DNA from: Warburgia ugandensis
Taxonomy: Eukaryota; Streptophyta; Magnoliopsida; Canellales; Canellaceae
Direction of reading: 5' to 3'
DNA length: 64,000 nucleotides
Assembly: GCA_035236585.1 (NCBI GenBank)
Contig: CP141135.1
Location: forward strand, 2,080,001-2,144,000
Numbering within the stretch: the first letter of the stretch is position 1; each line of letters starts with the position of its first letter. The translations under genes and the position numbers were made by a program. The notes beneath the pieces were generated by a model. That model was not told where the DNA came from and ran no database searches. It saw nothing but the letters and a program-made list of their open reading frames with translations. Positions 3,187 to 64,000 of the stretch are shown piece by piece.

Positions 3187-6142
3187 TTGAAGATCAATTT
3201 ATGAAGTTTCAATATACTAATCAATTTCATTCATATTTATTCCCAAATCAACTTAAAACATAAGTACGTGAAATTTTCTTGGAAATCAATTTAATGTCAT
3301 ACATAAAATTTCAATGGTTGACTAAACTAGGAATGATAATAAAGTCCAAGGGCATTATATTAGTTGTGTACTTTAAGCAAGACACATTTTCAAACTATAC
3401 ATAAGTTCCACTAAAAATAATTCCACAATCTTCCAAGAATATAATATTAGCTATTATACTTTAAAACTGGAATCTAATCCAACCACCAACTACCAATTTC
3501 ATACATCAAGATACCAATTTAACATTTCTAAGTATTATGCTATACATCTAATAATATGCTAATCATGCAAAGTATACCCAAAACATGACTTGATGCATTA
3601 AGTATCAATAGTGCTTTATCTCCATTCTTTTATTTATTAGTCACTATTTAAGACCCATATGCCTATTTACTAATTAATACTTAATGCTCATGCATTTAAT
3701 CACCAATCACTGATTGATGCTCACAAGCCTAAGCCTAGCGCAATCTTTGATTAGTGTAACGTGTGACTATCATATGAAATGTGATATGCTCTTGACTTTG
3801 TTTGGTATACCATGGAATTTCATTGTCCAAGGCATCATGTGCTAAATACAACTAGGTATCCATAGGCTGGTCAGTACCCACTACTCATGCATTTGGGTGT
3901 TACAATATGTTTTCTATCAATTTAATACCTATGCATCTGTTAGCGCTAATTATATGTGTACTGATTTTCTGTTTAGTGCGTGGGCCTAGTTGCTAATCTC
4001 TGCTCATATCCATACACGTGTTTTCTATACAATGCTCAGAACATGTATGTACCTAAGTCTAGTCCAACTCACTGCACACTCCAGCACCTGTCCCATATGC
4101 CCTTTTTGTTTCAACTTCACACAGTATATGGTGTGGCTAGAATTTCAAAATTTCTTCAATGAGGCAGAAATTTCTGCGAAATAGAGATCTAGAAGGTTCA
4201 TAATTCATATATGGAGCCCACTGCACCATAAAACGCAGCTTTTTAGTGGTCCACAACACAACTCACAAGCCCATATTTAACATCACAAACCCATTTTGAA
4301 CAACCGCAACATGTTTTCAAAGTGAATATACAAGTTTCAAGTGTACTCAAGGGCCCACCATTAGTTAACAAGCTTTTCCTTGATATGTATAAATGGCCTC
4401 CAAACAATGCCTGCTTAATGCTTAAACAAAGTTCACACGCTTTTATATGTGAGCATTTCCAGCATAATAAAAACTTTAGCAATGTTTGACACATGACAAT
4501 CTATTTTGTTCAGTGCGTCATGTGTCTAAATATTAAGTAGGTACTCTGTCTATGAAATGTATAAAGTGACATAAATTAAAAAGATTTCTAGGCTATTTAG
4601 TTTTATGTGTTTAGTTGCTGGATAAGTCGTTTGAGGAATGTGCATGATTACTATCAAATGATTAGATATTATAAACTTATGATCAATACTGGGTTGCTGA
4701 GTTTGTTGCATCTGATCACTATTAGATTTATCAGTGGCTTGTGCTTGGTCAGTGCTAGATCTTTGGGTGCCTTATGCCTAATCAAAATTAATGCGTCACA
4801 CAATAACAGATCAAGTGGTGTGAATTATGACAATCAAGTCCAGTGTGTCGTGCAGCCTATGAGTCTTAGTGTGCCACACAGCTGCACTGCTAAGTGCATG
4901 CTGCGGCTTGTTTGTTTTGGTTTTGTCATGTTCTTACATGTTGTTGGGCATATGGTGTAGCTGCCATGATCAATGCGCCACACACACTTAGAGGTTGTTA
5001 AGCACATGATTAAATGAATGGCACAATCATCCTATGTAAGGTGTAAGAAATTTTATCTTATTTGTTGTATTATGAAATTTCATTTCTAAGGAGTCGTGCA
5101 TCTAAATTTCACTTGGTGTAAGGTGTAATCCAGTACAATATGATACTATCAGCGCAAGGTCCCCATTAGATTAACATTCATCACGTCAGATCCAATCCAT
5201 GAACTCTTTGTGCAAACTAAATTTTAAATTCAAACAATCAAAATCTAAATGGTCTAATCATAGTTATGATCTTCATTTCTGAGACACTTGCACATAATCA
5301 CCATCCAATGACCATGAACCAAATTTTTAACTTGGTGCTGGGTGTGACTGGTATAATCCAGTACATTCATTAACAAGCATGGCTGCTCTATCTAACTATA
5401 TTTAATAAAATCAACATCTGATTTGATTCACTGCATAGCATAATTATGCATCATTTACCAAATTGAAAATCAAAATAAAAATTTTCAATTCTAAACATAT
5501 ACCCATGAATCTTGCACAACTATTCAAAGCCAAATATCTAATCTAAACATTTACCATGTGATTAACATCTAGAAATTTATCAAGCATATATGCATTTACA
5601 TTCTAATGAGCTTTCAATACAACTTCATTCCAAAAACAATCGAAAAAGCTCAATATTTTCTTCTTCTTTTTCAAAAGAAAACAGCGGTCTAGATCTAGAT
5701 TCCCTATCTCAAAATGCGATTTCCTTCAATGCAAATTCCTCTGCTTCTAATCGATTTGACACAAATTTCAGATCTCTGCTTTTCCTCTTGATCTTCTTTT
5801 CCTTTTTTCTTTCCTTTTCTCTTTTCTTTTTGTCTCACGCACTCCCCTTCTTCCTCTCCAACTATTTCACATTCCTAAACTTTTCTTTCCATTTTCTTTG
5901 TTTCTTTTATAGATACTTTCCTTGTAACGGTTTTCCCAATTTATTACATATTTGTAACTCTTCAAAATTTTAATGGTGTATTTACTCCCTTTTTCTATAA
6001 CTGTCAAATTATCATGTTTAGCCATTTGTAACGGTTTTCTCCACGTGGCAAAAAAATTCGTAATAACCAAAAAATTTAATTAATAAAATAAACTAACATA
6101 AAAACGTAATTTCTTTATTTCTTAAAAATGCGGGCCATTACA
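2028..6142 (-). mobile_element. 5' LTR of element A (about 4.1 kb)
   Basis: On the minus strand the LTR would begin TGTAATGGCCCGC at 6142, exactly where homology between the two LTRs of element B breaks off, and end at about 2028 (CCAGGACGTCGTA) next to the primer-binding site. The length is unusually large. A TGTAACACCC motif at about 3903 on the minus strand is an alternative LTR start, in which case 3904-6142 would be a different insertion. The stretch is AT-rich, with a TTC/TTA run (3034-3069) and an AT run (3151-3184), and has no credible gene. The open frames at 3980-4184, 4243-4494, 4607-4960 and 5590-5973 resemble no family. Confidence 0.6.
3034..3184. repeat. Microsatellites in LTR A
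   Basis: A TTC/TTA triplet run at about 3034-3069 and an (AT)n run at 3151-3184. Confidence 0.9.
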
Positions 6143-41500: not shown

Positions 41501-43917
41501 AACTTGATCTTCGGAAGGGAAACAAAAGCCCATGATACAGCTCCAACCCAAGGCTCTGATGGTATTAGTCTTAGTTTGACCCAGAGCTCCCCATCAATAT
41601 CAAAATCCCGAACTCGAACAGGTACAACAACAGGTATGATGCCAAATTTCAATGAGAGTGATAACAGCATGCGAGCACCACCTGTATAACGGAGGCCTAT
41701 TTGGTACCTATATAGTGTCAAAGGAAAAATCAAGTGAATGAAACATGGAATTCTTCTTTCAAAAGATAACAAAATACTTGACTTAAAAGATTGACAAGAA
41801 ATTATATTTCACAAACAACTCAGTCCTACAAACTATGATCATATGGCTTTACATGCTTAGAATGTCACAAAGGCCTTCGGCGAATTGTTTTAGGCCTTCA
41901 GAGAATTGTTTTAAACAGGTAGCAAACTCAATTGAAAAGTCAAATTAAGTATGTAATAGTACCATGCAAAAAGAATGAAAGCATCAGTCCATCCAATTGA
42001 AAACACTCAGATCAAATTTGATTCACAAAATCAATTCCTGACAGAGTTGTCCATGCCTTCTTTTTCTGACTGGTTAGAAATTCTTGTTACAAGCATATGT
42101 TTTATGTAACAAGATAGACATGCTATGAGAAATTCTATCTTTTTCTGGAATGATACTATCAGCAGATGCTATCGCAAAAGCACCAAAATGCATGCTAGAC
42201 CAATAAGCACTAGACTGAAGGAAATTAGAACCATGCTCAGATGTCAACATTTGTCTTTGGCTAAATCCACCTCATTTCTATCATGATATACGTGGACAAA
42301 TAAAAGCTGAAGTTCAACACACATATCTAGGATGTTCTTTGGTCATTAAACAAATCTCCACATGCACTTTATCTCCTTTTCTTACCACTCACCAGAATTA
42401 GAAGAATCAAGAAACTGTTGTTCCAGGTGCATTTTCCCTTGCTGGGAGGAGTAAAATGTGGGGTTCTCTGATGACCAGAACTTGTTTTCTTTTGGCCCTA
42501 TTATTCACGGACCAGAGTGCAAAATCTCCTGCAGGTACCTAGTACAGCTCAATCATCTAACTGGAGGTTGCTAAAATGATACTGTTAATGGTTAGGTGTT
42601 CATCCGGTACAAGTTCTCCTGTTCTAAAATACCAGGGGACTTCAGCTGCATCTGCTCATCACTTCAGTTCCTGGACATTTTTTCATTAGTTTACATATTC
42701 TTCATCCTTGAATAAAATGTAGCTTTTTAATTAAGAACATGAAGAAGAATCAGAAGAAGAACAGCTTAATTAAATCCGACAGAAGAAATCCAATACATAT
42801 AGTGATATATGAATTCACAGTATACATTAGGCCCTTGTGGTCCGCCCCTTCCCCGGACCCCACATAGGCAGGAGCTTCGTGCACCGGGAATGGGCCTTTT
42901 TAGTATACAAAAGAGCATTTGTAGTATATGTAATACAATCCTTTTCACATCAGCTGAAGACATACAATAAGCACTACTGCAAATTTCATATTCAGAAGCA
43001 GTACAAGCTGACGACATATAGTAAACAATAGAGAACTAATAAAGACTGGTACTGAAAATTAAAACAATGTCATGGCATCTGGAAACTCACTGCAAATCAT
43101 TAGCTAGGCGAGAAGTTCTGCGCTCGACATTCCTAACAGATAAGGGCTCTTCTCCTAGACAGAACTGCTTTATTTCAACCCTCTCCACATAATCAGGCTT
43201 CTTTAGATTGTCTATGACGGGCTGAAGCAATCCAATAATCCAATTTTCAAGCCCCGCTCTGTACACCTTCCACAATTTCCCAAGAACCATGTTCACCCAT
43301 TCGACCGATTCCTTTCTTTGCAGATCCTTCTCAAGAAATAGAGAAAAACTAGTCGGAACCTGAGGCCATATGCTCAACTGCCCATCATGCCTGGACTTGT
43401 TTCTCTTCCTTGATGTCCAAACTTTATCAAAAACAACCCCGACAAGGAAAAAGAACACAAACATACCTGCAATATTCCGATTAATAGGAGGTGCTGGGAT
43501 TGGGTGAATTACACCTAGCTGAGTCCTCAACTTATCTACCAAAGGATCCTCTTGGAAACTAGTGAAGTTAGATTGGATCTGAAAGTGCTCCCCAACTGAT
43601 TGACCATAATCCAATTCATCAGATAACTGCCTAACTAGTAACAACCTCTGGGAATTCAAGTTTTTTCTTGTCGAATCATGAAGATCAAAATTCAGATTCG
43701 AGCCTCCATTTTCAGAGGGAAGTGCACATGCTCTCCATTTCCACCTTCTACAACTAATTTTACCACCAAAAATTCCAATAAACACTCTTCTCGGGCCATG
43801 ATCTAACTGATAATTCCGTCTTTCAACAGTCCTGCCTATCTTACAAGGGCACAGATTCGGTGTCACCCAGCAAATCTGCGAGACAATCCAGCTCGCAGAA
43901 GCTGGTTGTATGAACAT
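35579..43917 (-). CDS. NTMC2T5: SMP and C2 domain lipid-transfer protein (NTMC2T5 type)
   Basis: Eight coding exons fit in phase: 43917-43091, 41707-41466, 40144-40126 (19 nt), 39009-38804, 37821-37712, 37507-37409, 36216-35772 and 35673-35579, giving 680 residues. The order is a basic N-terminal region, a membrane segment at about 147-163 (IAGMFVFFFLVGVVFDKVW), an SMP lipid-binding domain about 200-400 (ESVEWVNMVLGKLWKVYRAG, YTGGARMLLSLSLKFGIIPV), and one C2 domain about 410-502 (GELSVTLVDAQKLPYVFYGK, TDPYVVLSLGDQVI, FGFKDFTIGTAE). An acidic linker (EDEEDDATDREPLDSDLSDD) and a C-terminal membrane segment about 654-672 (ALLWFAVITGLAVLISL) follow. The ATG at 43917 directly follows an in-frame TAA, so it is the first Met available. 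SMP proteins move lipids at membrane contact sites; NTMC2T5 members are reported at plastid-ER contacts (from memory). The length agrees with the Arabidopsis homologues. No stop interrupts the model. Confidence 0.92.
42822..42900 (+). mobile_element. Au-like SINE 3' fragment in an NTMC2T5 intron
   Basis: Only the 3' half is present: AGGCCCTTGTGGTCCGCCCC, then CCCACATAGGCAGGAGCTTC and GTGCACCGGGA. It lies in the intron between exons 1 and 2, antisense to the gene. Confidence 0.85.
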
Positions 43918-57000: not shown

Positions 57001-59891
57001 TGGAACTTTATGAAACAAAATATGGCCACTTGTGGTCTCAAAGTGAAAACACCAGCACACAATAGTGACTGAATTAACACTTAAGGAAGTGATAATTTCA
57101 TAAAGTAACTGACATCAATAGTAATCTCAGGCAATAGCAAGCAATAATGAGTGGTAAATTGAGCTAAGTATTATCCAGGCATAGGAGAAAAGAAATATGA
57201 GAGCAATTGGAGCAATAAATCCAAATTGCTTTCTGAACAAAACATTTGGAGCAATAGGTACAAATTGCATTTTGAACAACTGTAATTTTGTTTGGGCATG
57301 AACTCTTTGCACGATTCAAAGCCCAGTTCAAAATTAATTGTCTCAGGAATTTCAAAGCTGATGTGACGTTTTACGTTTTTCTTCGGGTTTATATAGAGCA
57401 AGTACACTGAAAAATACACATCTTTTAAAGATTTACTACAAAGGCTCATTTTGCGGCTTCTACACCCTCAACAGTCAACACTAAAAACAATAACATCCAC
57501 AGAAAGACACGCATGAAGAACTGGCAGTTGTCCAGGTAGTGCTAACTTACACACTTAATGATATCCTTTCATGCCATATAAATCATAGTAACAATAGTAA
57601 TTAACTGTTGTCATTTCAAGGTCAATCTACTCACACGTCTGGATAATATTTTTCCTTGTTCACTAATAAATCAACCAATTAAAACTCATATTTCTATAAT
57701 CAATTCGATCTTACAGTTCACATATTCTGCTATGATATTCATAGAGGATATATAACACAAATGTGAGGTATTTTAAGGCAGGTTGAACATGATGTTGAAG
57801 GAGATACAAAAGAAGCTGATTGGGACAAACATGCAACAAAACAATTCCAAAGTGGGCAGAGTTTTTCCAACATGTCTACACCAACGTCTTCTTATGCTAA
57901 CACCGAACATTAAGATGGTCATGCATGTTCCAGAGATAATCAAATTCTACAGGAGTTTCATAGAGACATTTTAAATACATCATAAAGGGACCACATGTCA
58001 CAAGACCCATAAGTTTCATGTCTGGTACAATGGCAGGTGAAATAGTCAATGCAGAAACCAGTTTGAGGATGGTTTAGTTCTTCATTTTCGTCCTCTTAAT
58101 TTCCTAACCATTTTCTTACAAAGGCTAGACGCATTTAACTGTTTCAAAGTCAACAAATGGAAAAACAAGAATACGTCCTGATTCAACTAGGGATTAAAAC
58201 CTAGCAGAACCGATACTGTTTTGATTGTGTCAATTGTACACAGATGATAACCCAATAGTGTAACTTTTCCAAGAGAAAAGAACTAGGATAATTTATAGAT
58301 GTATGGACTATGGAATAATTGTATGTGCTTTAAGCTTTTCTTTCTAGTGTTCAAAGTTTCAGTTTTTCTAAATGTTTAAACAGCAAGACAGCCAAAATAT
58401 CTTGTTAGTTGTTACAGCATAAAAATTGGAGTGCTGACAATGAAGAATTGGATCCTTAGAATCCCTGTCATCAAAGCACCAATTTATGTTGATAGGTACT
58501 CCAACATCAAATTGGATAGCAGTATGGACTATGGAATAAGAGTATCGATAGTGGTATCACAATGGATAGTGATATGGACTATGGAATAAGTGTATGTACT
58601 TTAAGTTTTTCTTTCTAGTCCTCAAATTTTATGTTTTTCTAAATTTTTAAACAGGAAAACTGCTGAAATGTCTCATTACAGAAAGAAGTTGGAACACTGA
58701 CTATGAAGAATGGAATCCTAAGACTGCGTGTCATCAGAACCCCAAAAATTGCCTTTAAGTCTCATCCAACTTATAACACCAACAAATATGTCGAAGTTTT
58801 TTATATGCAGGTACTGTTATCATGAACCACATCTAACTATAGAGTACAAAGATAATGAAAAGAAAGCAATAAACATATTCACCTTGTCACAAGTTAGCAT
58901 AATATATGGGTCTAACAAACCTGCCCCATGATGATCCAGTTGTAGGAAAGGCCCAAAATTCTAGTACAAATAATTCATAACCTTTATACTAAACAAACCT
59001 TAAAGCGTGGATCAAATAGTATCTTCGGCAGTTCCTTCTCCCATTTCGAGAATGGTGCCACCCCACGCTCTTTAAGCATTTCCTACAGAATTGAGCAGAT
59101 TTAACATGAATTTCAGATTTTACATCAAGTAGAAACTCACAAGACATGCAAGTGAAGCAAGATTACAACTATATTTAACTACCCTAGTTAGAAATTTTAT
59201 CAATTTTGGAGTATCTTAAAGATGGAGTATTCACGTCTCAAGAGAATAAATCTAAAGGAAACTATTTCAACATCCACATATAGGTAAATTTATGTCTAAT
59301 TTACCTCAGCGAGAAATATGCCCCTAGGCTCGAGTGCGTAGTGAAACCAAAAGGAACTGAGGTGCAAACGAGCTGACACAATTGTAGACTCTACCAATTA
59401 GCGAAGCAGACAAGCAAAGGTACCTTGAACTGAATAATGCACTCCTTTGTAGGTCCACTGTCCACATCATCTGAATCTGATGATGAATCTGAAATATTTC
59501 CATCTCCATTACCATCTTTTAATTTGTCTCTGCTATTCTCACTCTGCTGGCCTTTCACTGCCACCTCAGTTGATCTTGGGCCATTTAAATCTGAAGCAGT
59601 AGGTGCAGAAGCAGCAGCAAGAGGTGAGGAAGTGATAGGAGTTCCAGCATCCTGTAGTTTCTTCTTAATCAGATCCAGCGCAGATGAAGAAACCAGAGCA
59701 CCTGAAATTCTTAGAGCTGTGGCATCTCGAGCAACTGTGTTAACAGTGGAAGCACTCAAACTAACAGCAGCAGAACCTTTATCCGCTGGAGTACTAGCAT
59801 TAGGCACTAAAGTCATGTTTAGTTTCAAAGAATCACTGTCCTGTTTCTTTCTCAATTCTGCAACCTCAAGTGGGACTTGCCAGCTACTTAC
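54100..59891 (-). CDS. PRP40C: Pre-mRNA-processing protein 40C, FF-domain part (5' exons not in window)
   Basis: Nine exons join in phase: 59891-59424, 59082-58999, 56961-56821, 56695-56589, 56507-56396, 56077-55934, 55808-55662, 55199-55077 and 54420-54100, giving the last 548 residues of a protein of about 830. The first visible exon starts [20 protein letters not shown], the end of a WW-like segment, and ends with an acidic stretch ([20 protein letters not shown]). Five FF domains follow, starting at [80 protein letters not shown] and [20 protein letters not shown]. The tail is basic and Ser/Arg-rich ([20 protein letters not shown]). PRP40-type proteins bind RNA polymerase II CTD through WW domains and join U1 snRNP with the branch-point complex in the nucleus (family knowledge). 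No stop interrupts the nine exons. The WW-coding exons are not found up to 64000, where retroelement and viral DNA sit instead. Confidence 0.94.
55237..55480. repeat. 126-bp tandem duplication in a PRP40C intron
   Basis: ACTATACTTTGCCTTAACAA at 55237 recurs as ACTATACTTTGGATTAACAA at 55363, and the similarity continues through AAAGCTCAAAATTCATC and AATGTTCCTC. Confidence 0.9.
58302..58740. repeat. Direct repeat (period about 271 bp) in a PRP40C intron
   Basis: TATGGACTATGGAATAATTG (58302) and TATGGACTATGGAATAAGTG (58573) head two diverged copies that share CTTTAAG, TTTCTTTCTAG and TGAAGAATTGGATCCTTAGA/TGAAGAATGGAATCCTAAGA. A short TATGGACTATGGAATAA unit also repeats in between (about 58523). 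Confidence 0.85.
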
Positions 59892-60247
59892 CTGGAACAG
59901 AAATTCAGTCATGTAACAGAAACCAGAGTCAACCAAAAGGTGCAACAAGTGAAAAATAGTAAAAAATAAATTAAGTTGATAAGATGGTCACCAGAACGCA
60001 ATGACAATATCAAGTTGATAAGATGGTCATCAGACCACAGACTAATATGAATCTCAAACTCTAAAAATGCAACCTTAATATGCCAAGCAGATGGAGCTAC
60101 TTGCTCATGACTCATCAGATTTAAGACCAACAATGCTGGGTGTCTGTTACATCAACTGAACCTAAGGAAGGCAGATTCAGCAAGTATTATACAAGAAGAG
60201 GAAAGGACAAAGTGTAAACAGCATTCAGTTTTACATTAGTTTACTTC

Positions 60248-60517
60248 TGTTAAGGCCAGTTACATCAGTTAGAGAGAAAGAAAAGGCAGTTAGGTATGGA
60301 GAGAAGGGAATATAAGGGGAAGGAGAGAAGAAAGAAAGGGAGGATTGTTGAAGGATTGAAGTGGAGGTTCTAGCTCCTCGAAAGCTAGAGAATTGTAATA
60401 GTAGAACATTGTATACAGAACAAAATCAACAGAGTTCTGCATTTTTTTCTTTCTGATTGTAATTGCAGCTCTGTATTCTAAGTCTTTTGAAATTGAATTC
60501 GATTGGAGCATCTATCA
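60248..60517 (+). mobile_element. Short LTR of a gypsy element
   Basis: Begins TGTTAAGGCCAGTTACATCA and ends CATCTATCA, with the primer site one base later. It contains ATTGTATACAGAAC and a T run typical of R-U5. The start could instead be at 60146 (TGTTACATCAACTG). Confidence 0.6.
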
Positions 60518-60518
60518 G

Positions 60519-60531
60519 TGGTATCAGAGCC
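60519..60531 (+). other. Primer-binding site of the short-LTR element
   Basis: TGGTATCAGAGCC immediately after the LTR. Confidence 0.85.
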
Positions 60532-60549
60532 GGTTCGAACCCAGGGAAT

Positions 60550-61298
60550 GGTTGGAACCCGGATGAAAAGAAACGAAGGAATGGAGAAGGAGATAGAAGG
60601 AGTCAGGGGTGAGATAGGAGACTTGAGGGAAAACATGGGGAGATTACAAACGAATGTAAATGCATTCGGTGAATATCTAGTAGAAATAAGAGAATGGATC
60701 AAGAATCAAGAAATGCCAGAGGAATGTTGAGATCGGCATAGGAATACAGAAGGTGGAAAACCCTCAATTGGTCACGAAGGAAGTTCCTTCTTACTGGGGG
60801 ATCATCATCATCATGAGTTTCAAGGAAGGAGACTGGATTTGCCAGCGTTCAATAGCAAAGATCCCTATAGTTGGTTATGTCGAGCTGAACGATATTTCCA
60901 GGTCAACCACAAATCCGACGAGGAGAAGATACCAACAGCAGCCATTTGCATGGAGGGAGAAGCTCTCCATTGGTTTTTGTAGATGGAATCAAGAAATCTC
61001 TTCTCATCATGGGGTTCTTTCCGGTCATCCCTGCTGCATTGTTTCCGATCTTCTCAATGGGACGACGATTATGAATCTCTTTTGGCTTTGAGGCAGACCT
61101 GAAGTGTCTTCGAGTATCTCCGGTCGTTCAAGCTTCTCTCCAGTCACCTGAGTGATCTTTCCGACAATCTGTTGAAAGAAGCCTTCTTGAATGGGCTTGG
61201 GGAAGATATCAAGGCCGAAATAAAATTATTCATGCCTGCATCTTTATATAGGCTTGTGGATTTAGCCCACAAAATAGAAGAGAAGAACATTGCGTTGC
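60550..61298 (+). pseudogene. Ty3/gypsy gag fragment, interrupted by viral DNA
   Basis: Reads MVGTRMKRNEGMEKEIEGVR and a coiled-coil-like NMGRLQTNVNAFGEYLVEIR, then a TGA. A gag core follows: LPAFNSKDPYSWLCRAERYF and AAICMEGEALHWF, a TAG, SSWGSFRSSLLHCF, LLALRQT, a stop, then FLNGLGEDIKAEIKLFMP and LVDLAHKIEEKN. At about 61298 the sequence changes into the viral leader. At least three in-frame stops show it is dead. It lies antisense to PRP40C. Confidence 0.85.
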
Positions 61299-61491
61299 TC
61301 TTAGTTTCAGTTTGAGTTGTAGAGCAAGAAGCTCAGCTTTCAGCAATTGAAGTTCTTGTTCTTCCATTCTCAGTTCTTATGCTTATGCATGTTAGGTAAT
61401 TCCGCACTCTGATTTTGTTCAATGTTAGTTATCTCTACGGCGCACTTCCGTTTATGAAACAACATTGAATAGTTTTCCGATCCCTTTTGAA
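61299..61491 (+). repeat. Left arm of the viral inverted repeat (leader sequence)
   Basis: 193 bp that match the reverse complement of 63661-63852 with a single visible mismatch (GTTGTTTC against GCTGTTTC on the right-arm strand). Both arms are viral leader, lying just upstream of the primer site at 61506. The left edge abuts host gag. Confidence 0.95.
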
Positions 61492-61505
61492 AATTGGGCC
61501 TTTTA

Positions 61506-61517
61506 TGGTATCAGAGC
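61506..61517 (+). other. tRNA-Met primer-binding site of the endogenous badnavirus
   Basis: TGGTATCAGAGC followed by TATCCTTATG. In Caulimoviridae this site marks the conventional position 1 of the circular genome (established). Confidence 0.85.
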
Positions 61518-61902
61518 TATCCTTATGTGCAGATTAACCATGTCTGAGTAGAACCTTAAGGTTCGGGTGCTCAGAGGTGCGTGGTCTGGTACTTGGGGAT
61601 ACCAGCTCTTGTTCCTGTTACTATGCTTATCTTAGTTACATTTCTTTCATTTATTGCTGTTATTTAATTTCGGGATTCATAGTTTAAACCTGGTAAGACT
61701 TTCTGTGAGGCATGCTATCGGAAATGGTAATCAGTAGGGAAACCAAAAGACGTAAGCCGATGTAAGTCGCCAAGGAGGGTGCCGCAGGTCATAAGGTGAG
61801 GGGAACTGATGGGTTACCAAATCTAATTGTATGTCTTGCTTAATCGTCTTCTGCTTTAAATATGAATTCTTAGCTTAATGACGCAGCAATTTATGCTTAA
61901 AA

Positions 61903-62334
61903 ATGTCAGTAAGATGGGAGCAACAGGTTCAGGAATGGTATAACCGAGCACCGACTGCAAACCTAGAGTACCTAGACCTTTCCCTTTCAGACAGAGTATC
62001 TTCTAAGGATATAGCTCATAACCTCGCAGTTTGTTACGATAGAATTTGTTTGGCCTCTAGAGTTCATTTAAAGAATTTTAAGCTGGTTCTAGAAAAACAT
62101 CAGCTACTGGAAAACAAGCTCCAGGAGATTCAATTTGGCCTCACGGCCCTGGCCACCCAAGTTCAAAACCAGAAACCACTGTCTAAGGTAGACGTCAGAA
62201 CCTTAGTGACAGAAATTGCCCAGCAACCTAAGTTGGTTGAAGAGGAAGCCTTACGGCTAACAGAGGACCTAAAGGAGAAAATCCAGAGGATTGAGCAACT
62301 GGTTCAACGAGTGGAGAACCATCTCCTTTCATGA
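61903..62334 (+). CDS. Badnavirus ORF1 (P1) protein
   Basis: 143 codons, fully open. It has WYNRAPTANLEYLDLS near the N-terminus, a hallmark of the badnavirus P1 family (DUF1319 type), and a coiled-coil-prone C-terminal half (LEKHQLLENKLQEIQFGL, LKEKIQRIEQLVQRVENHLL). The length is normal for the genus. P1 is a virion-associated protein of uncertain role (family knowledge). The stop overlaps the ORF2 start as ATGA, allowing leaky scanning from one mRNA. Here it is a host-integrated copy; expression is unknown. Confidence 0.9.
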   Translation: MSVRWEQQVQEWYNRAPTANLEYLDLSLSDRVSSKDIAHNLAVCYDRICLASRVHLKNFKLVLEKHQLLENKLQEIQFGLTALATQVQNQKPLSKVDVRTLVTEIAQQPKLVEEEALRLTEDLKEKIQRIEQLVQRVENHLLS

Positions 62335-62765
62335 ACGTGAACAACCTGGTAAACACAGACGCTTACCAGATCTCAGATCAGATCCTCCAGACTTTGGACG
62401 ATAACCCGACAGCAGGTTTCGTCAAAACCACCGATTACTCAGGTTCCTCGACAGCAACTGCGCTGTCCATAAAGCAAAATAATTTGCTTCTGGCAGTAGT
62501 TATCCAACAGTCCGAGATTCTTGCAGACATCCGTCAGGATATCCGTCGGCTGTTAAGCCAGAAGGGGGTTGTTGAACCTACCCCTTCAGCACCACCATTA
62601 CCAGTCCAGTCATCGACCGAAGAGGTCTTGACAAAAATCGAGGCAAAATTAGACCATCTGGGTCTATCGGGACTGCCATCTAGAAAGGTAGTTACCGGCA
62701 ACATCAGGGTTGTAACAGACCCTCAGGAACTTCTGTTAACAGAAATCGACAAAGCGCGACAATGA
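62331..62765 (+). CDS. Badnavirus ORF2 (P2) protein
   Basis: 144 codons, open. It has coiled-coil-like central heptads (LLLAVVIQQSEILADIRQDI), a proline-rich linker (EPTPSAPPLPVQSS) and a second helical stretch (EEVLTKIEAKLDHLGLSGLP). Badnavirus P2 is a small nucleic-acid-binding, virion-associated protein (family knowledge); the basic tail usual for it is weak here. It overlaps ORF1 and ORF3 by ATGA. Confidence 0.88.
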   Translation: MNVNNLVNTDAYQISDQILQTLDDNPTAGFVKTTDYSGSSTATALSIKQNNLLLAVVIQQSEILADIRQDIRRLLSQKGVVEPTPSAPPLPVQSSTEEVLTKIEAKLDHLGLSGLPSRKVVTGNIRVVTDPQELLLTEIDKARQ

Positions 62766-63662
62766 GTCGATCATCTAGGAGTTTGACCACAACTGCTCCA
62801 GCAGTTAGAAGCACACGGAGAAGTGCAGATGATGGCCCCCAGCATGAAGATCAGATCAGATCTTACAGGGCAACACAACGGAGGTTATACAACCTTCAAC
62901 GCAACATTCGGAGCCTTGGGCATCGAATGACTGGCAGAGGGTCTTATTCACAGACTCTAGAACAACAACTGGATCCAGATTTACAACTCCAGTTATCCAT
63001 GAAGGATCGTGCAGCATTAGTACCAAATGCGGGTAAGTGCTATACCGAAGTCAAGCAACAGATACACACCACAGAGTGTATCTTCACAGGTCTGAAGAAG
63101 CCATCTTGTGCTTGGACAACCAGCAGGTTGATCGAGCCTTCATACAACCAGAAAGTTATTATCGGTTTCAACAGGAAAGAATGCAGTTCGTGCATGTTGG
63201 GATCCTACAGGTTCGCCTACAGATCTTGCACAGACAAGATGAAGGGACTATGGCATTGGTAATATTCAGAGATAATCGCTGGCAAGGAGACCAATCCATA
63301 TTTGCAACAATGGAGATAGACCTCTCCCGAGGGAGTCAATTGGTCTATGTTGTCCCAGATACAATGATGACAATTGCGGACTTCTACCGCAATGTCCAGA
63401 TCTCAATACAGACCAGAGGATACCAAAATTGGCAGAATGGAGAAGCCAATTTACTGATCACCAGAGGGATGGTTGGCCGACTATCAAACACACCCAATGT
63501 TGGCTTTGCATATCAAATCGACCAAGTGGTGGAACATCTAGCAAGCAAAGGAGTATTAGCCCTTCCTGGCAAGAGATACAATCCACAACAGTTCCAGTCA
63601 AACAACTGGCATATCAAACCGCCTGTGCTATCCATACCATTACAAGCTTCACAAGCTAATTC
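62762..63662 (+). pseudogene. Badnavirus ORF3 polyprotein, N-terminal part only, frameshifted and truncated
   Basis: The start overlaps the ORF2 stop (ATGA). The first frame runs from 62762 (MSRSSRSLTTTAPAVRSTRR) through the arginine-rich N-terminus (YNLQRNIRSLGHRMTGRGSY). Near 63030 the recognisable sequence moves to another frame. There it shows the viral movement-protein domain (30K-superfamily type), for example ALVIFRDNRWQGDQSIFATM and GEANLLITRGMVGRLSNTPN. At 63662 it is cut by the inverted leader, which adds about a dozen unrelated codons and a stop at 63699. Capsid, protease, RT and RNase H regions are missing. A GGTAAGT donor-like word sits at the frame change. Confidence 0.9.
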
Positions 63663-63852
63663 AAAAGGGATCGGAAAACTATTCAATGCTGTTTCATAAA
63701 CGGAAGTGCGCCGTAGAGATAACTAACATTGAACAAAATCAGAGTGCGGAATTACCTAACATGCATAAGCATAAGAACTGAGAATGGAAGAACAAGAACT
63801 TCAATTGCTGAAAGCTGAGCTTCTTGCTCTACAACTCAAACTGAAACTAAGA
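63661..63852 (-). repeat. Right arm of the viral inverted repeat
   Basis: The viral leader in reverse orientation, 192 bp, essentially identical to the left arm. The ORF3/leader joint shows a few shared bases (TTTTGAA on the leader strand), as in end-joining. Confidence 0.95.
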
Positions 63853-64000
63853 CTCCAAGCCCGAATGAAACTCCAAACCCGAAACTCGAATGCTTACAAC
63901 GTTGGGAGGTAAGAGCTTATATAGGCTCGACCTCACCACAAACTCACGACGCGTGTAAAGGAGGGAATCTCCTTTCCACCGAAAGCAGGCACCTAAACAT
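63853..64000 (-). promoter_or_regulatory. Viral promoter (TATA box) facing left
   Basis: The minus strand reads CTATATAAGCTCTTACCTCC, with the TATA box at 63923-63915. It lies about 70 nt upstream of the right arm, in the position expected for the badnavirus pregenomic promoter. GCGTCGTGAG and TTTACACGCGTCG lie further upstream. Transcription would run toward 63661 and then through ORF3 to ORF1 in antisense. Confidence 0.7.

What the first reader, a model, noticed from the sequence alone, without database searches (positions are those of the whole stretch)
61299..64000. Rearranged endogenous badnavirus with open ORF1 and ORF2 and an inverted copy of its own leader
Seen: tRNA-Met site, ORF1 (143 codons), ORF2 (144) and ORF3 start chained by ATGA overlaps, then a breakpoint at 63662 into an inverted viral leader. 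The arms 61299-61491 and 63661-63852 differ at one position. Known: badnaviruses have this ORF order and integrate only by accident. Inference: two viral fragments, or one rearranged concatemer, joined head to head during integration. The near identity of the arms and the open ORF1 and ORF2 argue for a fairly young event.
Basis: partly seen in the sequence, partly recalled or inferred. Interest (0 to 1): 0.92.

Follow-up and report, generated by a model that had tools for sequence, protein, structure and literature searches.

The report
Young inverted badnavirus array in intron
A plant virus that normally does not integrate has left a recent, rearranged 12-kilobase block of its DNA, with one piece turned around, inside an old jumping gene in an intron of a magnoliid plant gene; this is a known kind of genomic fossil, and a good place to test whether such inverted viral DNA makes antiviral small RNAs.

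Summary
In detail: ORF1 (DUF1319, E 1.8e-35), ORF2, ORF3 start, ATGA overlaps, tRNA-Met-type site and 193-nt inverted leader arms with one difference. The window stops inside the feature. In the host assembly (1.12 Gb, 14 contigs) the viral block is C10:2141299-2153368, 12,070 bp: a 2,361-nt fragment (+) joined head to head to 9,709 nt (-) of the same virus, more than one 8,451-bp unit, with a 1,258-nt direct repeat. The block lies in the gag of an older Ty3-type element (LTRs 3.3% apart) within a 17.3-kb intron of a PRP40C-like gene. Outside six scrambled tracts the copies differ by 0.20%, so the event is young. One tract shifts the ORF3 frame in the window; in five of the six the CAG/CTG count differs between copies, a pattern that fits consensus errors at methylated sites better than decay. 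The genome has 22 ORF1-bearing loci; 11 of 12 multi-match loci carry both orientations. A new member of a known kind (rearranged endogenous badnavirus). Hairpin RNA is possible, untested.

The parts
59394..59891 (-). Exon of host PRP40C-like gene that follows the WW exons (lower end approximate); the 17.3-kb intron begins at 59892
   Evidence: Open frame; acceptor CAG and reading frame continue the exon that ends KYYYNAQTK at about C10:2157163; FF-domain pieces further down. The gene name is recalled; WW and FF domains are
60138..60518 (+). 5' LTR of the host Ty3-type element (ends approximate)
   Evidence: Matches L016:4199-4532 with 11 mismatches in 332 aligned bases plus 53 gap columns; followed by a tRNA-Met-type site at 60519
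60548..61298 (+). Gag remnant of the Ty3-type element, interrupted by virus
   Evidence: Open pieces; weak Ty3_capsid match, E 0.044, below cut-off; its end aligns to a related gag at L016:2520-2655, 92 of 146 columns identical
61298..61299 (.). Left host/virus junction, no evident microhomology
   Evidence: Compared with the viral sequence upstream of the other arm
61299..61902 (+). Viral leader; fold energy z -4.4 against 20 shuffles
   Evidence: its first 193 nt were found at two more places, C10:2143660-2143852 (-) and 2152111-2152303 (-)
61506..61517 (+). tRNA-Met-type primer binding site
   Evidence: Exact match to the first 12 bases of a published badnavirus site
61648..61895 (+). Large stem-loop between primer site and ORF1
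   Evidence: Minimum-energy structure; same order as described for badnaviruses
61903..62334 (+). ORF1, 143 aa, open
   Evidence: DUF1319 E 1.8e-35; best named match 54% identity
62331..62765 (+). ORF2, 144 aa, open
   Evidence: Position, size, ATGA overlaps; no protein scored E <= 0.01
62762..63659 (+). Start of ORF3, movement-protein region; frame changes in 63026-63039
   Evidence: MP Pfam E 7.8e-4, below the curated cut-off
63659..63660 (.). Head-to-head virus/virus junction; the inverted copy ends 14 nt short of the primer site
63660..63852 (-). Inverted leader = end of the 9,709-nt (-) viral block that continues to C10:2153368
63853..64000 (-). Viral promoter region with TATATAA (63923-63917), reading leftward into the array
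   Evidence: the same heptamer also occurs by itself at 61250-61244, so the motif alone is weak; the stretch is repeated in the tandem copy, 2 differences in 1,258 nt

Best explanation
A badnavirus-like pararetrovirus DNA was captured, as one joined block, into a break in the gag of a Ty3-type element that already lay in a PRP40C-like intron. The block is a 2,361-nt piece (leader to early ORF3) joined head to head with a 9,709-nt piece of the same virus that exceeds one genome length. Shown from the assembly: structure, host flanks, intron position, copy identity. Inferred: end joining of linear or concatemeric viral DNA as the mechanism, capture of both pieces together, and an age under about 1.4 million years.
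For: Three leader copies found in the genome, all here. The left fragment is an inverted copy of C10:2149942-2152303 over all 2,361 nt. Direct repeat of 1,258 nt with 2 differences, 8,451 bp apart. CP, zinc knuckle, protease, RT and RNase H domains in separate pieces of the (-) block. Ty3 gag on the two sides maps to nearby positions of a related gag. WW exon and GT/AG splice ends flank the whole block. Pooled divergence outside the scrambled tracts 7 in 3,532 (0.08-0.41%) against 11 in 332 for the Ty3 LTRs.
Against: No reads could be examined, so the junctions rest on the assembly. Ages use rates that I chose and assume identical copies at entry. The related gag used for the empty site is only 63-67% identical, so the target loss is known to some tens of bases only. 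ORF2 had no match; MP is below its cut-off; no exact AATAAA lies between TATA and primer site. Genus was not tested by RT/RNase H comparison.
Confidence: 0.92

Rival explanations
1. The inverted 2,361-nt fragment arose after integration, by local inverted duplication or template switching from the (-) block, not during capture.
For: Every part of the left fragment is contained in the (-) block, and mixed-orientation sets are common in this genome (11 of 12 multi-match loci).
Against: The flanking gag appears to be cut once, between the left fragment and the right end of the block; the inverted pair and the direct repeat have about the same divergence (0.22% and 0.16%), as expected if all copies entered together, although the intervals are wide.
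Confidence: 0.2
2. The inverted repeat is kept because it is transcribed (from the viral promoter at 63923-63917, or as part of the host intron) into a hairpin RNA that feeds siRNAs against related viruses. This is a reading about function and can hold together with the best explanation.
For: 2,361-nt inverted repeat; TATA-type motif oriented into the array; the intron's pre-mRNA would carry both arms. A review describes rearranged endogenous caulimovirids with inverted repeats as 22-nt siRNA sources in tomato (passage seen).
Against: No RNA data; the locus is young, so its presence needs no selection; badnaviruses are said to lack the leader-decoy strategy of caulimo- and tungroviruses (passage).
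Confidence: 0.2
3. Assembly chimera.
For: No reads seen; the assembly seems to have base-level problems in viral DNA.
Against: The arms are 2.2 kb or more apart with different flanks, unlike fold-back chimeras (inference); the block lies in a Ty3 gag that resumes on the other side; mixed orientations occur at other loci too.
Confidence: 0.03

Closest known systems
Endogenous banana streak viruses of Musa balbisiana (eBSV)
   Same: Badnavirus DNA with fragments duplicated in the same and opposite directions at one locus (PMC7814968 passages; PMC10377300 passages)
   Different: Different virus lineage and a magnoliid host; sits in a Ty3-type element in an intron; ORF3 of the (-) block is interrupted
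Rearranged endogenous caulimovirids with inverted repeats that make 22-nt siRNA in tomato (Valli et al. 2023; known to me through passages of PMC10377300; the paper itself is not held)
   Same: Inverted-repeat conformation
   Different: siRNA and transcription not tested here; badnavirus type in a magnoliid
Badnavirus insertion in the R1a gene of eggplant (PMC8346255, passages)
   Same: Badnaviral DNA within a host gene
   Different: That insertion disrupts a resistance gene and is co-transcribed with it; here it is intronic and expression is unknown

Membership tests
Badnavirus (endogenous) | ORF1 of the DUF1319 family | tested here: met
   E 1.8e-35
Badnavirus (endogenous) | ORF1-ORF2-ORF3 chained by ATGA in -1 frame | tested here: met
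   criterion from PMC5799344 passages
[quoted passage not shown]
   Site 61506, stem-loop 61648-61895, ORF1 61903; criterion from PMC5902531 passages
Badnavirus (endogenous) | ORF3 with MP, CP, zinc finger, protease, RT, RNase H | tested here: met
   CP 8e-43, zinc knuckle 1.4e-5, RVP 8.6e-6, RVT_1 4.8e-36, RNase H 3.8e-9 in separate pieces of the (-) block; MP only 7.8e-4, below cut-off, so MP by itself is inconclusive
Badnavirus (endogenous) | ORF1 and ORF2 without internal AUG (leaky scanning) | tested here: inconclusive
   ORF2 none, ORF1 two out-of-frame AUGs at 61914 and 61935; passages give none for one virus but one or two short uORFs within ORF I for some members
Badnavirus (endogenous) | Poly(A) signal downstream of the TATA box | tested here: inconclusive
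   Only exact AATAAA was sought; none between TATA and primer site. A variant is reported for another badnavirus (passage)
Badnavirus (endogenous) | Genome unit of about 7-9 kb (range recalled) | tested here: met
   Same-strand leader spacing 8,451 bp
Badnavirus (endogenous) | RT/RNase H nucleotide identity to genus and species | not tested
Inverted-repeat siRNA-producing endogenous caulimovirid | Long inverted repeat | tested here: met
   2,361 nt, 97.9%
Inverted-repeat siRNA-producing endogenous caulimovirid | Transcription and 22-nt siRNA | not testable with these tools
   No RNA data
eBSV-type rearranged array | Duplicated fragments in same and opposite orientation at one locus | tested here: met

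The most novel reading that the evidence does not exclude
An intron of a housekeeping splicing-factor gene has acquired a viral inverted repeat that is transcribed with the host gene or from the virus's own leftward promoter, giving a heritable intron-hairpin source of antiviral siRNA; the prevalence of mixed-orientation badnavirus arrays in this magnoliid (11 of 12 multi-match loci) would then reflect selection for hairpins rather than only the mechanics of capture.
Probability: 0.15. Interest if true: 0.7.

Novelty: new member of a known kind. Interest (0 to 1): 0.45.

Why it matters
It is a young, delimited badnavirus capture: insertion site, internal junctions, unit length and order of events (gene, then Ty3, then virus) can all be read from the assembly. 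The genome carries 22 ORF1-bearing loci, and 11 of the 12 with several matches have both orientations, which makes the question whether inverted arrays are a by-product of capture or are kept for RNA silencing directly testable with small-RNA data. It also warns that frame breaks in such copies may be sequencing artefacts at CAG/CTG sites.

Tried and rejected
Viral-contig scans with ORF1, the MP piece and an ORF1 alignment gave no confirmed relative. Rfam and tRNA scans of the window gave nothing. A DNA comparison of 61299-64000 with the rest of the window gave only two matches of 19 and 22 nt. ORF2 had no protein match. I rejected a minus-strand strong-stop product as the source of the inverted leader, because the inverted copy runs on through the promoter. 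I rejected capture of the RNA 5' end at 61299, because the break lies about 70 nt past the TATA box (inference). I first misread the L016:4208-4532 match as viral (it belongs to the second search); one search shows it is the Ty3 LTR.

Reading the many indels between copies as decay was given up. Alignment matters for the count: 28 mismatches and 14 gap openings in BLAST, 15 substitutions and 22 indels with cheaper gaps. In 23 scrambled tracts of 5 copy pairs one copy holds 41 CAG/CTG sites and the other 5 (random expectation 18.1, sd 3.8; none of 5,000 draws as extreme either way); the counts differ in 21 of 23 tracts. Those 5 pairs were taken from the 8: two dropped pairs had no tract, one had 2 tracts (344 gap columns in all). 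With all 8 pairs (25 tracts) the excess in the richer copy is weaker: 57 (poorer copy 11) against a random mean of 39.8, sd 6.5, maximum 64. Other 3-mer classes (CGA, CCG, GCC) shift more strongly still relative to expectation. Pairs share loci and are not independent. That nanopore-type methylation errors are the cause is inference; I do not know how the assembly was sequenced, and the two controls with no tract show that not every viral stretch is affected.

Full report
What is there. One search finds inverted arms 61299-61491 and 63660-63852 and one difference between them. One search gives ORF1 (143 aa), ORF2 (144 aa) and the ORF3 start, each overlap being ATGA. ORF1 matches Pfam DUF1319 at E 1.8e-35; among its 17 protein matches the named ones include cacao swollen shoot, citrus yellow mosaic and fig badnaviruses and Musa proteins at 47-54% identity. 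ORF2 had no match. A tRNA-Met-type site lies at 61506 and a large stem-loop at 61648-61895 between it and ORF1 (fold z -4.4 against 20 shuffles). [quoted passage not shown] No exact AATAAA lies between the TATA box and the primer site, and ORF1 holds two out-of-frame AUGs.

What the window cuts off. The window is C10:2080001-2144000 of a 1.12-Gb, 14-contig assembly. The 193-nt leader was found three times in that genome, all here: 2141299 (+), 2143660 (-) and 2152111 (-). The left fragment 61299-63659 is, over its full 2,361 nt, an inverted copy of C10:2149942-2152303 (97.9%). The two (-) copies share a 1,258-nt direct repeat with 2 differences and no gaps, 8,451 bp apart. The viral block is therefore 2141299-2153368: 2,361 nt (+) and 9,709 nt (-). 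Separate pieces of the (-) block match caulimovirid coat protein (8e-43), zinc knuckle, aspartic protease, reverse transcriptase (4.8e-36) and RNase H. ORF1 and ORF2 of the (-) block are open. Its ORF3 is interrupted by in-frame stops in two places, at least one of them outside the scrambled tracts, so it is not intact.

Where it sits. To the left is a Ty3-type element: LTR 60138-60518, primer site 60519, gag to 61298. Its other LTR is at L016:4199-4532. The gag on the left and the sequence on the right align to nearby positions of a related gag (61287 with L016:2655, and L016:1192 with L016:2695; 63% and 67% identity), so by extrapolation host loss is some tens of bases at most. A WW-domain exon (Pfam E 6.8e-9) lies at C10:2157369-2157785 (-) and the next, recognised by motif, ends near 2157163. 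FF-domain matches lie at window 54.1-56.7 kb, 4 of 5 pieces tried, one above the curated cut-off. Splice ends GT at about 2157162 and AG at 2139892 (window 59892) bound an intron of about 17.3 kb that holds Ty3 and virus. I call the gene PRP40C-like from its WW and FF domains; the name is recalled.

Age. Outside six scrambled tracts the inverted copies differ by 5 transitions in 2,274 nt plus one length difference in a T run; pooled with the direct repeat 7 in 3,532, or 0.20% (0.08-0.41%). With assumed rates of 1.5 to 6.5e-9 this is 0.06-1.4 million years over the intervals; the Ty3 LTRs differ by 11 in 332 (3.3%). Viral variation before entry would make it younger still.

A caution on decay. 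The scrambled tracts carry 21 of the 22 indels. At this locus the CAG/CTG count differs between copies in 5 of 6 tracts. In 23 tracts from 5 copy pairs one copy has 41 CAG/CTG sites and the other 5 (random 18.1, sd 3.8); with all 8 pairs tried the totals are 57 and 11 against 39.8, sd 6.5. Loss of CAG/CTG with gain of CG (Spearman -0.67) and indels is not what deamination does. I read it as consensus error at CHG-methylated sites; the frame change of ORF3 at 63026-63039 is one such tract, so it should not be counted as real inactivation without reads. Two of the 8 pairs, one of them the direct repeat here, show no tract.

Genome context. 69 ORF1 matches fall into 22 loci (neighbours within 60 kb); 12 have more than one match and 11 of these hold both orientations (some matches are pieces of one copy, and the count is a lower bound). 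Mixed orientation is thus usual at multi-match loci of this host, which pairs with Tasmannia in a 19-row tree.

Mechanism. End joining of linear or concatemeric viral DNA in a break fits: no evident microhomology on the left, small target loss, head-to-head joint. The inverted end lies 14 nt from the primer site, where caulimovirid DNA has a discontinuity (recalled), so a trimmed natural end is plausible but not shown. A review states that mechanisms of capture remain speculative and lists break repair and retrotransposon-linked routes (section read).

Function. A TATATAA at 63923-63917 reads leftward into the array, and the host gene is transcribed in the same direction; either could yield RNA with a 2.36-kb inverted repeat. 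Passages of the review report 22-nt siRNA from such rearranged elements in tomato. Nothing here tests it.

Known or new. Badnavirus elements in magnoliids are already reported (PMC9794742 passages). I searched for papers on badnavirus, endogenous and magnoliid (6 papers) and on Canella winterana with genome assembly (2 papers, listing only); the main texts of PMC13308828 and PMC9794742 do not contain the names Canella or Winteraceae. That is no proof that this element is undescribed. I rate it a new member of a known kind.

Noticed in passing
L016:554-1036 (-), C10:2152753-2153235; repeated at C10:2144302-2144784: A 161-codon frame overlaps the 3' end of ORF3. 65 matches in the genome, 35-100% identity, 56 of 65 without a stop inside. 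I fetched 20 of the 65 places (18 of the 20 listed without a stop): 19 of 20 keep two frames open over at least 140 codons. Its position is that of CSSV ORF Y and CYMV ORF6 (PMC4514669 passages) and fGBV1 ORF4 (PMC9573714 passages); homology to those was not tested.
   Followed up: partly
Genome-wide: 69 ORF1 matches (a lower bound) in 22 loci; of 30 matches spanning at least 130 of the 143 residues, 29 have no stop. In a tree of those 30 with 12 reference proteins the host label needs 2 changes and copies of a locus mostly group together, so several related viruses probably entered (many forks weak).
   Followed up: partly
62363-62389, 62407-62413, 62441-62463, 62673-62682, 62794-62799, 63026-63039 and other viral loci: Scrambled tracts between near-identical copies in which CAG/CTG sites are usually lost in one copy; probably consensus errors at CHG-methylated motifs. 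Methylation-linked indel errors in nanopore assemblies are reported for bacteria (PMC12506013 passages).
   Followed up: partly
Window as a whole: Host looks like a magnoliid near Canellales: the tricalbin-like exon at 43087-43917 is 79% identical to Tasmannia lanceolata and pairs with it at 99/98 support in a 19-row tree. Fourteen contigs would fit a Canellaceae chromosome number (recalled).
   Followed up: partly
L016:1377-1564 and 3332-3519: A 188-nt inverted repeat (96%) with Ty3-type protease pieces in both orientations nearby, to the right of the virus: a nested or rearranged transposon.
   Followed up: no
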